A stretch of DNA of 64,000 nt from Toxoplasma gondii ME49 (lineage: Eukaryota; Apicomplexa; Conoidasida; Eucoccidiorida; Sarcocystidae): positions 3,442,043 to 3,506,042 of the forward strand of contig NC_031477.1 of the NCBI RefSeq assembly GCF_000006565.2, given 5' to 3'. The position numbers and the translations under genes were made by a program. Of the stretch, positions 48,698-56,400 are shown in pieces (the first letter of the stretch is position 1; the number at the start of each line of letters is the position of its first letter). Below the pieces are notes generated by a model. That model ran no database searches. It saw only the letters and a list, made by a program, of their open reading frames with translations, and was not told where the DNA came from.

Positions 48698-49460
48698 TTA
48701 CCAAGCTGCTTCCGGATCCAACACTTGAATACCCAGTCGATGCACATATAGGGATGCAACGTCAAGACTAGAACCACTCAAGTACTGCAGTCTGCAGCCT
48801 TCGAATAGTTCTCTCTGTTGCCGAGCATGGGCTGGAGTTTCAGAGGCGAAGATGAAGTAGATCTGCCCGCCCGCTTTGAAAAATGCTGCATGATACGGTG
48901 GAATGGTGCCGCTGGTGACTAGGTTTGAGGTAGGCTTTTACCTGGCGTCTTTGATTGCTTCATCCATGTGCTGATGAAGGACATAAGGCGATCGGAAATG
49001 CACTTTCATCGGTAGGAATAACTCACCACCGTTGTGAGGAAGAACAGCAAGAATAGGACTACCATGACGATAGTGGCAAAAAGAGCAACTGATCGCTTGT
49101 CATCTTGCAGCCTATTGGTACCACTTAGCGTGAATCATATAGCGCACATTTAAAAACGCTTCTACCTGTCCTCCTCTGATTGAAGGCACGCAAGTTCTTC
49201 GGCTAGGCGGGCAATGTCGTTAGAATCAACTCCAGCAAAACTACTGGCAGAGCTCTGGATCGTCGTTGCTTTGTCCGTTGAAAAAGGACACGTCAGCCCA
49301 CACTTACTTCGGACGCCTTCGCGATCTGTTCTTTGAGTTCTGCGACACGCTGTACCCGCATATCATGAACCCACTTGGGCACGTGGCTGAGACATTGAAC
49401 TGATTGAGTGAACGCTATGACAACTGCCGCCACACAGGCAGCAAGCACTAAAGGTCTCAT
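48698..49460 (-). CDS. small secretory-pathway protein with one internal transmembrane helix
   Basis: Five exons: 49460-49308, 49254-49166, 49111-49027, 48970-48942 and 48911-48698. All are GT-AG and in phase, for a 189-residue product with stop TAA. The first exon starts MRPLVLAACVAAVVIAFTQ, a clear signal peptide with likely cleavage near SVQC. A short, mostly helical lumenal region (RVAELKEQIAKAS, DIARLAEELACLQSEEDR) is followed by a hydrophobic helix (VALFATIVMVVLFLLFFLTT, about residues 91-110). The ~80-residue C-terminal part is compact and less charged (IYFIFASETPAHARQQRELF, LASLYVHRLGIQVLDPEAAW-like end). I do not recognise the family. Signal peptide, coiled segment and single TM would fit a secreted-organelle or surface protein of the parasite, but that is inference. 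It shares a 216-bp divergent promoter with the gene at 49677. Confidence 0.66.
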
Positions 49461-49676
49461 CTTGGCGCCACGGTTATCAACACAGGAAGCGCCAACAACA
49501 GTTTTCAGTTCATTTAGAAGTGAGCACTGTCAGCTGAAAGGCCGCGTTGTTTGCCTCCTTGTGTACGTACACTGTCCGGCCACCATCGCACGCCTCAATG
49601 TTTCCACGATGCTGCATAATAGGAAGCATCGTACTTCTCCAACGCAGCCGTGTTCAGTTGAGTGAGCGAATCTACA
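49461..49676. promoter_or_regulatory. bidirectional promoter between two small secretory genes
   Basis: Only 216 bp separate the two divergent ATGs. The region contains a perfect 12-bp palindrome, GTGTACGTACAC at 49561-49572, related to the GGTGTATGTACACC motif that recurs in the window. It also holds an inverted repeat, CGATGC at 49607-49612 and GCATCG at 49626-49631. Two copies of GCGCC lie near the minus-strand start. No TATA box is evident. Sharing of the promoter is inferred from distance and orientation. Confidence 0.5.
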
Positions 49677-50385
49677 ATGAAGGTCAGCAGAAGGACACTG
49701 TTTTTGATTGTCGCACTGACAGCTGGATTAGAGGTAGCTGTTGAGGTGAACAGTGTGAAGACGAAAAGTGGTAAGAAACACTTAGGTACGACGTCACTCG
49801 AGTCAACGGCGTGGAGTTATAATAAACGAACCAGGACAGTTTTCCTCTGGACTAGGCAGTGAGGCTAGCCAATTTTCAAGACAAACCCTCCCTGGTTTGG
49901 TGGGCTCTGCTTCACGATGATGATAGTGGTGCCTAACACACACTTGGCTCCAAGACTCTCGAGGTCCAGCCCGATGACGATGACGAGGATGACGGTAAGA
50001 GGACAGACGAGCAGCTATAGCATTTTCTCAACCACGCTTCCATTTAGACTTGTTTCCGGATGAGCTTGGCGCGTCGTACGAGGGAGTTCTCAGCTCCATG
50101 ACAAGCCTGTCCCCTGAGGTAAAATGACTCTACATCAGACGATATGCGTTTGCAATATGGGGAAGACAGGAGATGACAGCGGCTGAAGTGAGCGGCCTCC
50201 TTTCCTATGTCTAGTTACAGGTTTGAACCCACTCCCGTCTCGTAGGACAATATCTTTGTGCCTCAGGAGGTACCTGGCGCCAAGGAGGTGAGTAGCATTA
50301 ATCATTACTGTGAATCCTCGGGCGCTGAGACGGACACTGACAGGAGTACTCTCCTCACTCACTGCGGTTTTTGGAACGAGCATAG
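49677..50385 (+). CDS. small secreted acidic protein, signal peptide, five exons
   Basis: Starts MKVSRRTLFLIVALTAGLEV, a strong signal peptide. Proposed exons: 49677-49745, 49955-49994, 50048-50118, 50246-50287 and 50344-50385. Exons 3 to 5 are well supported: G|AC joins across phase 1, GAG|GTAAAA and GAG|GTGAGT are good donors, and the product ends RFLERA-stop. The exon 1 to 2 junction is less certain. A stronger donor at 49770 (GTG|GTAAGA) would put exon 2 out of frame unless another exon intervenes. The mature peptide would be about 65 residues, acidic (VQPDDDDEDDDLFPDE), then SYEGVLSSMTSLSPE and DNIFVPQEVPGAKE. I know no matching family. Small acidic secreted proteins of this kind are common among apicomplexan dense-granule and other secreted proteins, but no assignment is made. 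Confidence 0.5.
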
Positions 50386-50409
50386 CAAAACAGCGGTGGT
50401 GTGAATTAC

Positions 50410-53400
50410 CTAACATATGTGCGCACAACTCCCTTTGGTGATGGCTTCGTACACGCAATAGCCGTCATCATTTTCCATTCGCTTCGGACCTATTTTGGTT
50501 GCTGACACATTCTCGACCCTGTCTACAGTGTATTGAATCTGTATTCCAAAGCCAGCTAAGATTCCGCTTGACAACCATGCGCGCAATTTTTTGCGCACCT
50601 CTTCTGTCTACCCTCTATACAAATTTCGAGTAGCACTGGACCTTCCAGCCTCTTCTTGCACCGATTGCTTCTCGGAAAAGCTCTTTTCTTTCATACAGCA
50701 GCTTCTCTTCTTAGTTGCCTGCCTGAAGATCCAGGAAAATCCTTGGGGCAGGTACATGATGCCGCCGGGTAGTGACACCAGGTTTCCCGAATCTATAATA
50801 ATGTACAGTGTAATACACATGCAGCCTGAGATCCTTCCATCACACCGCACGTGGCGCTGCCCCAGAGCGCAAAACAAAAACGACACGGACAGAGGCTCAG
50901 GACACCTCAGGTGAAGCATACTACTCATACCATTTCGTAGTCCACAGCGTTTTTTTCGCTTCTCCAGCGGCACCAGCCCAATTACTGTCAAAGTGTTAAC
51001 TGCTAATGGCACAGAAAGGTCATTCTTTCACTTGCGCCTACACGGCTTCACTTCCTATTGTCAGCAGAGAGCTACCCCAGCAGCGAGTTCAGTAATGCTT
51101 CCAATGTACATGGGGAGTAGGTTCTTCGCGACAAAAGCCAAAGCAAAAAGAATTGCCACTTGACAAAACTACGCCACAGGTGCTCGCAGCTTCGTCAGAC
51201 TACACATCCCACCAATAGCGACGCAATTCCACAACAGCTGAGTCGCATGGAAAAAGCAGCACGCAAAGCCGAAAAACACATGGTACCTGAATCTACCGCA
51301 AGTGGGAACGTGACTGAGTATTTCTACCGTTACTAGCATGACCAGACGAGCGAAGACACACAGACCGTCATTGATCAGTGTATAGAGCGTCAAATATCGC
51401 TGTCAAAAATAGAAGTGAGCGAAGAAGGCGCCACCCGGTACACCCACACGTTTCCTTCACGTCGATCGAGACGTGAAGTTCGTTGACGCGCTCTCTTCCT
51501 TGTGACTACAAGCTCCCTGCACCATTCACACAAGAATACAAGAGTCAACACATTCATACAGTTTGTTCGCTCGTGTGTCACGTAACCTCTGGCAACGTGC
51601 AATTTGTTCGGCGGAAAAAGCTGTAGAACTCTGAACTGACTCAAAACAGAGGCCCCCAAGCACCAGCTGCCGCGACCACAGAGCCAATAACGCCACATTG
51701 CACCACGCGGTGTCATCACCTTACACAAAAAGTCATGGCTTACCGAATGTCTTCAATAATCTCGCGGTTCAGGGGCCAATATGAATGCCTCATTGAGTGG
51801 ACATTATGACCGAGCCACGTCATATCAATGACGTCCAGATCTGAGACACAAATAACGCCAGCACTGCTTTCGTGATGGAGGAAATTTCTTACGACCGAAA
51901 AATGCTAGACAGCAGGTCGCCGCAACTATGACTGAATCACCATAGTGCGTCCATGGGTTCCTGTAGAAGTCGCGTGGTAATGGTTGTGACAGTGAAGCGC
52001 TCACCTAGCCAATCTCTGGTATCAGATTTGAGATAATCCGGTTCATAACCTTGAAAACATGCCATTGTTTCGGCGAATACGGGTGGAAGCTTTGGAGGCA
52101 CATCACTCGCCGATTCGTCCTCCCTAGGTCTTGTGTAGAGACCAAAGACACTACGCCCCAATGCCTGCCGTCCACTGAAGAGCTCTGACCACCAGAGCGC
52201 CTGGTACACAGCAGGGAGAGCAGATACGAATCATAACGCGTCATGTAATGTATATATAGATATACACGCAAATCTACCACTCGTCTATGAATTTGGACCA
52301 TGGCCATCTGCTTGCAACCACTGAGCACTCAGTCTCCCACGCGCTGCAGTCGCCCAAAAACCCGCTCACATATGTCTTAAATTTTGCTTGTCTAACGCGT
52401 GTGGGCGGCAAGCCCAGTAGCGCAAGTGTCTATCAACAAATGAAAGTACACACAGTTGGCTGGATTAACATGCAAACAACCTCAAACATGCTTGATATGT
52501 AGATTTCCAGGAACAAGTCAGCTCAATGGGATATGCGCGGGGGAGACTGCCCATCAGCCTCTCTCCCGGTCTTGCCTCCGTGCCACAGCTCCACTGCAAT
52601 AACAGAGTGAGGCACCAGAAGCGGCCTATCAAGGTGATAGATACGCAAATGCCTTGAACGCTAACTAGTGCAGCGACTTACCCCGTCATGAGCATCACAG
52701 AATAGCGAAATGTTGCTGCAGTACTGCCGCAGAAACGAGTATTCCTGCATCAGACGAAGGGAGACTGCCACAAAAAACGCATTGGAAGGCAGCAAATGTT
52801 CCCTTTCATTAGCTCACCAATACTGAGATACGTGAATGTCAGTCTCAGTGAATCACTTCATGAAGCCAAGGAACTTGCCCATATAGGATCAGATCATTTC
52901 ATCGACGTCTTCCACAACAACAAACACTAACATCAACACTAACGGATGCACTGTCTGTGCTGTCTCCTCGTGTTCACCACCACTGGGCGGCCCGTGTCCT
53001 TGCTTCCCAAACTCCGCTGCGCTATGCCCCATGATGTCTTACCCGCAAAACGAAATCATCCAAAAAGAATTCTGGGTTCAAGAAGATCAACGAAACCAGT
53101 TGCATGCGGTCTTGAAACTGCGTTGGAAGTTTGCCGTCATTTTCTGTGTCCAGTGACTTGCTGAAGGTGCTGGAGCATCCACGCAGGCAAATGCCACAAA
53201 ACGAATGTTTGAAGAACGGAGTTATGAAGTGTTTTTCAATAGTGTTAGTGACTCTCCGCCATCATGATAAACCGGTGCTGCACAGCCACACCGATCAACC
53301 ATCGGAAAGGAGACACTCGAATTTTCTCCTCACTCGAATGTGATCTGGGACCTACAATTCTGCCATGCCACGAAGGCTGTTCATTAAGAGCCGAGATCCG

Positions 53401-56400
53401 AGACTGTGCGCCATGATGTGAATCTGCCTGATGCCTGTAGACACACCAAACGAAACCAGAAACACTGACAACGCCGTCCATCGCATGTTTACCCAAGGGT
53501 ACACGCTTTCCCCCCACCTAGCCAGAGGAAGTTGGGGAGAGGGGAGATAGAGTCGGAGAACCAGCAGCACCCTGTGTACGTCCCGCTCGTGTCGGCCTCG
53601 ATCAAAACAAATTTGTTTCCAGCTGTCATTCCAAAGAAGGTTCAAAACAGTAGCCGTACCGTTATCTCGTAAAGAGACGATGAATTCATGAAAGCACTGC
53701 TGAATTTTGGGGTTGTTTGCGTTTTCACGGGCTTCAAAAAACTCTGTAAAGTTGCGCCCTGCGGGCCACGTGAAGAGGAATGGCTTGATATAGCTGGGGA
53801 AGTTTCCAAAGGAAAGCATTTGCGCCATGATCTGCAACGACTGTACATGGTTCGTGTTGTATCCGTGAATGAAGATAAGCGCCTCAGGAATCCCAGCCAC
53901 CTCTGCTCGCCGCCAGCCGTCGATATGAAGCTCCGGAGCGCTCTGCAAACACCAGACCATTTGCTAACTTGATATACTATTGAATTATTATTTCCTAGGG
54001 TACGCCACGGAGACAGATTATTCTTTTAAATGTTCAGAACCGGGGCAAAGAATAATAAACAACTGAGGTAAATACTTTCACTTTAAGTACAAGTTTTTTC
54101 CTAATCCAACTATTAGTATTTGAAGGACAGTTGAAGCTGAAGGAAGTAACGAACTTTGCCAAGTGAAACCTGGAACAGCTTCTGAAATACGTCGTTCAAT
54201 TCCAGAGACAAATTAACGAGAGTTAGAGGAAATCCAGAGAAGCCGGTTTTCAAGATGCCCGGGTTGGTGCTCGAGCGTAACGATGTTCCACAGATCCTTC
54301 TAAAAAAAAAACTCAATTCGACCTCCACACGGCAACTCTTGCTAAAACGCAAACGCGGTTTTGGAATCTCGTCATTGCTACCTGTCAGAACGCACAAATA
54401 AAACTTGACGTCAGGGACCGTCCCGAGGCGACGGACAGTGTCAGCACAGCCGAGTTCCGCGCAGCAGTCGAATCTTGAAACGCTTACGGTCATCCAGTTG
54501 AAACCTTTCATGGGATCGTCATCCGGAGCCAAAGGGTCATTCGGGGAGAAGGAAACACCATGCTTCAGAGTTTTCGCCATTATGGAATGCGTGCTCGGTG
54601 TGTTGCTCAGAGGCTTCGACCCCGACCCTCGCGCGTTTTGTGTTTTCCGGTTTGCGTTATTCCGAATTCGCACAACCAGGCGCTTTGATTCTCCATCGTA
54701 CGTTTGACGCCGGATTCGCGGCCTCTCGTAGAAGAAATCCCCGACAACAGTGTTGCGCAGACCCCCCTTTCCTGCCTTTCGCTTGATCATCATCTCCGGA
54801 CCGTGCAGCGCAAGACCGAACCTACGAACAGACCAGTTCAGGGACTCGCTCAAGAAAGTGAACAGTTGGTTGTAAATTTACATCTGTCTACATATTGTCC
54901 ATATAGAAAATACAAAGTTGTGAATAAGAAGGTATGCAGTGACTCATGGGACTTCGAGTTCCTGCATGTATGAACAAAGATATACAGGTGCATGCATGTG
55001 TGCGTGTATGTAGAGATAGATTTAGAGAGATGTAGATTTCGGATGGACGTGTATGCGTTTCAGGTTCTCAAAAAAAAAATCAACTCACGATTCCACATCC
55101 CCTGTCTTCCCCTACACCGGAAAACGAACAAAAAAATCACAGCTTCACGTTCGTTTCTCTACCTGTTGATACGAGCGACACATGTAATCCATACATATCA
55201 TGCCTACAACAACCAATGTGGAATAACCTTGATGCGGTATGACATTGAACGCCAACGTTTTTAGCTGTCTCAAGAATACTAGCGGGTTCTCCGAGGCTAC
55301 ACCAAGTCTGAAACCCGTCTTCCGACGTTCCTTGTGACACTGAAGAAAAGCAGGAGTCTCCGTCCTCAAGGGTGAATCCTTTTCAGGAAATCATCGACAC
55401 ATTTACACACTCATTTCCTGACTTCTTCACGGAGGAATCAACACGTTATCACTGCAAAAAGTGTTGAAAGATCAACGACGCACACACATGGGAGAATTTG
55501 GACGGAAAGAACAAACACAATCAATTTCTGTCTGTGATACCTTGTTTTTTATCGGCGTGACCTAAAGTTTAATTCATCTGGCAATTTCGATCTCCCCGGT
55601 CGCAATGAAACGTACGTCTGTCTCTTTTTCCGCCCGCACAGTACAACTAAAATGACGCGGTTTACAAATCGCGATCACGTTGTTTTCAGTTCTAGGGGGA
55701 CCCCCCTGAATATATTTCCAGCTTAACACAGAGACAAGAGGGTTTTGAACCTCCATCATGATACCAAATGCAGGCGTCTCCCTTGAAGCGACAAAAACCG
55801 ACATAATCGCCCTTCCACTGACTCCATTTCGATCTCGAATTGTCGACGAAGTAAAACATTCGGGTATTCAAAGCGCGACTCTCAGGAATCCTATTCGGAA
55901 AGAAAGACTGCCACAGATACGAATGAATCCCTGGCTCTGGACAGAATGACTTTGAATAACGTGTAGTATGCGGGAAAATAAAGAAACGTACTTTTTTCGA
56001 AAACAGAACCCGAAAAAGGAGCTGCACGCGTCATTCAGAAATTGTAACTTACCGCTGGTGGAAGCCCCGGGCGCGCAGCTGCGACTCTGACATTTGTCGA
56101 GTTTTCTGTTTGTCACGGGGCCCTCTGATGTCTGAAAGCAGCTCGTCGTCTCGAGGATTTCCTGCATTATCTGAATCAGAGGCTGCATGCTGCGGCAGCA
56201 GTCTCGGCTTTGCCGCCTCCACGGTTCCGAGTGGAAGCACTGCTGACACCGGCACCCAGCCTGCGATGTAGAGACCTGAGCACGCAGACCCCACCAGCAA
56301 AACGGACGTTCTACGAGCCTCAGTCACTACAGGAGCAGCTAGTACATCAGAGAGTCGCGACAACTGTTTTTGGCCAAGACAAGGCCGCGAGAACCATGAC

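What the first reader, a model, noticed from the sequence alone, without database searches (positions are those of the whole stretch)
49308..50385. Divergent pair of small, intron-rich secretory genes sharing a 216-bp promoter
Both strands show a signal peptide immediately beside the shared gap (MRPLVLAACVAAVVIAF on minus, MKVSRRTLFLIVALTAGL on plus). Each is followed by a chain of short exons in consistent phase. One product has an internal TM helix (189 aa); the other is a very small acidic peptide (~87 aa precursor). Such genes are easy to miss because no single exon exceeds ~215 nt. Neither resembles a family I know. The pair could be co-expressed parasite effectors or surface proteins.
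Basis: partly seen in the sequence, partly recalled or inferred. Interest (0 to 1): 0.75.

Follow-up and report, generated by a model that had tools for sequence, protein, structure and literature searches.

The report
Two ordinary head-to-head Toxoplasma genes
Two small back-to-back genes of the parasite Toxoplasma, both already in public databases without a known function, share a short promoter; one makes a small membrane protein kept in related parasites, the other an acidic secretory protein found so far only in Toxoplasma, and nothing shows them to be joint effectors.

Summary
The pair is real but mostly known and partly misread. The start codons diverge across exactly 216 bp and both products begin with a signal peptide. 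Relatives exist in Neospora, Besnoitia and Cystoisospora; conservation jumps at the predicted cleavage site (2 of 23 positions before, 21 of 27 after). Chains of 87 aa arise in 119 of 500 shuffles, so homology carries the case. Co-expression is unsupported: published TSS mapping puts about 25% of Toxoplasma genes in bidirectional pairs without evidence of co-regulation (PMC7854901). Best reading: an ordinary bidirectional pair of a conserved helical type-I membrane protein and an acidic secretory protein. Most unusual is the palindrome GTGTACGTACAC in the shared promoter: 525 genome copies against 35 for its reversed control. It resembles two inverted AP2-G-type half-sites, but I could not show that its copies mark promoters.

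The parts
49308..49460 (-). minus gene exon 1: ATG, signal peptide (1-23), start of conserved ectodomain LSHVPKWVHDMRVQRVAELKEQIAKASE
   Evidence: same start in P0001, P0002 and P0003; P0004 begins five residues earlier
49166..49254 (-). minus gene exon 2 (second ectodomain helix)
   Evidence: matches P0001
49027..49111 (-). minus gene exon 3, transmembrane helix SVALFATIVMVVLFLLFFLTT
   Evidence: hydropathy maximum 2.93 at residue 89
48942..48970 (-). minus gene exon 4 (HMDEAIKDA)
   Evidence: same in P0001, similar in P0002 and P0004; absent from the Besnoitia model P0003
48840..48885 (-). minus gene exon 5, corrected: SIFQSGRADLLHLRL, stop
   Evidence: RADLLDLRL also ends Besnoitia P0003
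   Evidence: in none of the 5 relatives found; codon score like random
49461..49676 (.). 216-bp divergent intergenic region (shared promoter, inferred)
49561..49572 (.). palindrome GTGTACGTACAC (two inverted GTACAC half-sites); only TGTACGTACA in the window
49677..49770 (+). plus gene exon 1: signal peptide and start of a basic S/T-rich segment (the 87-aa model, as I rebuilt it, leaves at 49745)
   Evidence: against P0006 and P0007
   Evidence: in P0006 and P0007
49955..49994 (+). plus gene exon 3 (TLEVQPDDDDEDD)
50048..50118 (+). plus gene exon 4
   Evidence: spliced in P0006, read on to a stop at 50214 in P0007
   Evidence: not decided

Best explanation
An ordinary Toxoplasma bidirectional gene pair. 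The minus gene makes a 133-aa type-I membrane protein: the signal peptide is removed near residue 23, about 64 residues of two-helix ectodomain follow, then one TM helix and a 25-residue cytosolic tail. It most likely works as a small helical partner or assembly subunit in an endomembrane or surface complex of sarcocystid coccidia (inferred). The plus gene (TGDOM2_289870) makes a soluble secretory protein with a basic S/T-rich segment and then a probably disordered acidic region (charge -17 over 70 residues in the 123-aa model). The two share a promoter region, not a function (inferred).
For: Shown: relatives of the minus product in T. gondii, Neospora, Besnoitia and Cystoisospora plus one unnamed record (the same 5 proteins in both searches; Cystoisospora is Sarcocystidae). 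Invariant positions among four relatives: 2/23 in the signal peptide, 21/27 just after it, 0/10 in the linker, 18/27 in helix 2, 13/21 in the TM. No second place in the genome better than E 1 for either protein. Published: about 25% of genes in bidirectional pairs, no evidence of co-regulation (PMC7854901, passages).
Against: The minus codon score (-0.009) is not above the 95th percentile of random frames (0.025). The tail RADLLDLRL is seen in 2 of the 4 aligned relatives; the other two models stop before it (0 of 25 tail positions invariant for that reason). AlphaFold models are poor (A2 mean pLDDT 60.5, pTM 0.28; P0006 alone 40.2), so helix layout and disorder are tentative. No localisation, expression or interaction data were reachable; the partner-subunit role rests on shape and conservation only.
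Confidence: 0.6

Rival explanations
1. The plus 'gene' is not protein-coding: it is the divergent antisense transcript of the minus gene's promoter, annotated as a hypothetical gene.
Against: Codon score above the 99th percentile of random frames; the region's longest open chain is reached by 4 of 500 shuffles (2 of 200); signal peptide with an upstream in-frame stop; five or six GT-AG introns of similar length; four member sequences in the P0006 cluster.
Confidence: 0.3
2. Co-expressed secreted effectors or surface antigens.
For: Both carry signal peptides; head-to-head arrangement; shared palindrome.
Against: No RRL/TEXEL-like motif in the models tested, no Pfam surface-antigen domain, no evidence of co-regulation of such pairs in general (PMC7854901), strong conservation of the minus ectodomain.
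Confidence: 0.08
3. The plus product is an apicoplast-targeted protein with a bipartite leader: signal peptide, then residues 24-53 as transit peptide.
For: The corrected model has a basic, S/T-rich segment after the signal peptide (charge +2, 9 of 30 S/T).
Against: The acidic remainder has no Pfam hit, and the 87-aa form has no PDB match of note (best E 0.033, no stretch significant on its own); the segment is short.
Confidence: 0.15

Closest known systems
T. gondii bidirectional gene pairs (PMC7854901; 745 pairs reported)
   Same: head-to-head genes with a short shared intergenic region
   Different: the gap here is measured between start codons (216 bp), not TSSs; whether this pair is on the published list could not be seen (supplement)
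'Putative transmembrane protein' family P0001-P0004
   Same: the minus gene is the T. gondii member, 131 of 133 residues identical to P0001
   Different: nothing found; function undescribed in the searches made
TGDOM2_289870 hypothetical protein (P0006)
   Same: 147 of 148 residues identical to the window's model
   Different: 3' end may differ
P. falciparum AP2-G binding motif GTACNC (PMC7083873, passages)
   Same: each half of GTGTACGTACAC reads GTACAC outward from the centre
   Different: here two half-sites are fused as a perfect palindrome; no binding protein was identified

Membership tests
Sarcocystidae 133-aa putative transmembrane protein | sequence homology over ectodomain and TM | tested here: met
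   E 9.0e-66 to P0001; Neospora 77%, Besnoitia 74%, Cystoisospora 67% identity over 58-62% of the 189-aa query
Sarcocystidae 133-aa putative transmembrane protein | signal peptide plus one TM | tested here: met
   hydropathy peaks at the N-terminus and at residue 89; conservation step at residue 24; SignalP and TMHMM were not available
SRS/SAG surface antigens | SAG domain, several disulphide cysteines, C-terminal GPI signal (definition recalled) | tested here: not met
   no such Pfam hit; after residue 23 the minus product has one Cys, the plus 123-aa model none, the P0006 ending two; no hydrophobic C-terminus
Dense-granule exported effectors | TEXEL RRL motif after the signal peptide (recalled) | tested here: not met
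   regex RRL and RxLx[EQD]: none in the 133-aa minus and 123-aa plus models; effectors without TEXEL exist (recalled), so this does not exclude an effector
Co-regulated bidirectional pair | shared TSS region and correlated expression | not testable with these tools
   no expression data; the general finding in PMC7854901 is against
Apicoplast bipartite-leader proteins | signal peptide followed by basic S/T-rich transit peptide | tested here: inconclusive
   plus residues 24-53: charge +2, 9 S/T of 30; no localisation

The most novel reading that the evidence does not exclude
The 216-bp promoter carries one copy of an unreported Toxoplasma-wide cis-element, the palindrome (G)GTGTACGTACAC(C), made of two inverted AP2-G-type GTACAC half-sites and bound by an ApiAP2 dimer. 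It would switch this pair together with hundreds of other loci, possibly in a stage-specific, even sexual, programme.
Probability: 0.2. Interest if true: 0.6.

Novelty: new member of a known kind. Interest (0 to 1): 0.25.

Why it matters
For the genes: corrected models and a membrane-protein family found only in Sarcocystidae (plus one unnamed record) make tagging straightforward, and show how short introns (51-64 nt) and a microexon mislead gene reading. For the palindrome: if functional, a 14-bp element with 319 perfect copies against 1 for its reversed control would be a handle on Toxoplasma gene regulation that I did not find in print in the searches made (lists were cut at 25 of 465 and 25 of 127 papers, and figure logos cannot be searched).

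Tried and rejected
Internal duplication in the plus protein (DLF-PDEL / NIFVPQEV): score reached by 16.8% of 2000 shuffles, rejected. Weak Pfam hits (best E 0.011, FlgM; the three shown for P0001 lie below their cut-offs) and PDB hits (best E 0.13, 0.033 and 0.14) were treated as chance. Palindrome copies as promoter marks: GCATGC, a published promoter motif, occurs at 0.77/kb within 300 bp of 39 copies, 0.83/kb further out (19 of the 39 loci are long enough) and 0.56/kb in the window; GAGACG/CGTCTC 2.26, 2.50 and 1.28/kb: no local peak. Stop-free stretches at 21 copies were not shorter than at 500 random window positions (mean 202 against 169 codons). So these tests did not show that the copies lie in promoters. 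Fold search was not run: models too poor. A first, narrower splice simulation (200 shuffles) could not reach the true minus model and was replaced; it gave 30 of 200 above 87 aa on each strand, 2 of 200 reaching the plus maximum of 204 aa and 31 of 200 the minus maximum of 83 aa. Literature: gene identifiers gave no paper on these two genes (three papers, all for the neighbour 289880); one search was noise. In the listing, PMC4326188, PMC11417369 and PMC4537280 hold 'GTAC' and were not opened. Supplements could not be read.

Full report
What was checked. The window lies in a 65.28-Mb genome of 1959 contigs. The minus model differs from a T. gondii record at 2 of 133 residues and the plus model at 1 of 148, so this is T. 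gondii or something extremely close; contig sizes fit an ME49-type assembly (recalled).

Minus gene. A protein search found five relatives at E <= 1 among 202 candidates: T. gondii 133 aa 'putative transmembrane protein', Neospora 119 aa, Besnoitia 143 aa (BESB_020220), Cystoisospora 123 aa (partial), and an unnamed 130-aa record. A profile of the first four found the same five proteins at E <= 10 among 2540 candidates, so no Eimeria or Plasmodium counterpart was found at this sensitivity. With the acceptor at 48885 the window gives a 133-aa protein that differs from P0001 at two residues (L100V, H130D). Besnoitia ends in the same RADLLDLRL, which supports this frame; the Neospora and Cystoisospora models stop before it, so the tail rests on 2 of 4, and the Besnoitia model lacks the HMDEAIKDA exon. 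Invariant positions by segment: signal peptide 2/23, first ectodomain helix 21/27, linker 0/10, second helix 18/27, TM 13/21, tail 0/25 because of the truncated models. The low-confidence AlphaFold model is all helical (2-24, 29-52, 61-132). Codon scoring did not by itself separate this gene from random frames (-0.009; 95th percentile 0.025), nor the 133-aa from the 189-aa model (-0.012).

Plus gene. Two T. gondii records match: P0006 (148 aa, TGDOM2_289870) and P0007 (VEG, 104 aa). The endings differ by keeping or removing a short intron; intron retention is the commonest splicing variation in T. gondii (PMC8561664, passages). No relative outside T. gondii was found, but only lengths of about 48-152 aa could be seen, so absence is not shown. 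The 123-aa, 148-aa and 87-aa models score 0.138, 0.097 and 0.127 on codon usage against a 99th percentile of 0.056 for 5000 random frames of 48-56 kb with stops skipped; training was on five long ORFs of the window, themselves unverified.

Chance. With lax splice rules and introns of 45-70 nt, keeping the first 20 codons, 119 of 500 shuffles on the plus side reach 87 aa, 52 reach 123 and 28 reach 148; on the minus side 77 reach 133 and 25 reach 189. The longest chain that the real plus side allows, 219 aa, is reached by 4 of 500; the minus maximum of 178 aa by 32 of 500.

Pair. TSS mapping in T. gondii reports 745 bidirectional pairs (1490 of 5868 genes, 25%), no evidence of co-regulation, and about 15% artefacts among manually checked pairs, some from hypothetical models on antisense promoter transcripts (PMC7854901: abstract, passages, section 35). 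That makes the arrangement ordinary and the co-expression claim unsupported, and it supplies the main rival for the plus gene. Right of the pair, the minus-strand exon 53355-53963 has a DUF900 alpha/beta-hydrolase hit (E 3.7e-13). [quoted passage not shown] gondii homologue is TGME49_289880 (PMC11809919, passages), numbered next to 289870, so this exon is probably that gene. The minus gene's own identifier was not seen; 289860 would fit the numbering (inference).

Palindrome. The gap contains GTGTACGTACAC at 49561-49572, the only TGTACGTACA in the window. In the genome TGTACGTACA occurs 966 times (reversed control 382), GTGTACGTACAC 525 (35), GGTGTACGTACACC 319 (1). Flanks of 21 of the 525 copies, all from C1 and C2, are unrelated beyond the palindrome's edges, so it does not look like part of a longer repeat. 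The copy here lacks the outer G and C. PfAP2-G binds GTACNC (PMC7083873, passages); each half of the palindrome fits that. No held paper has both 'Toxoplasma' and TGTACGTACA (10 of 10 listed); two further string searches showed none, cut at 25 of 465 papers. The strings GTAC, ACGT and TGTA do not occur in the text of PMC2688925, and the motif is not named in the passages seen of PMC2928733; logos in figures cannot be searched. Two attempts to show that the copies mark promoters failed. I found the motif by looking in this gap, so its position here is post hoc; the genome count is independent.

Verdict. A real, already annotated, uncharacterised bidirectional pair with corrected models; interest low for the pair, moderate for the palindrome.

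Noticed in passing
49561-49572 and genome-wide: Palindrome GTGTACGTACAC, 525 copies in the genome against 35 for the reversed control; 14-bp form 319 against 1; flanks of 21 copies unrelated.
   Followed up: partly
53355-53963 (minus): Exon with DUF900 alpha/beta-hydrolase hit, probably the homologue of the malaria quinoxaline-resistance protein PfQRP1 (TGME49_289880).
   Followed up: partly
48840-50404: All ten introns (four minus; six plus in the 123-aa model) are 51-64 nt by the coordinates, shorter than the 80-4000 bp expected range used in one RNA-seq mapping of these species (PMC3310773, passage).
   Followed up: partly
49606-49632: Imperfect inverted repeat ACGATGCTGCATA / TAGGAAGCATCGT (13-nt arms, 85%) in the shared promoter.
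   Followed up: no
minus gene residues 100 and 130; plus residue 66: Amino-acid differences between the window and the T. gondii records P0001 and P0006 (L/V, H/D, D/Y); H130 alters the DLLDLRL tail that P0001 shares with Besnoitia.
   Followed up: no
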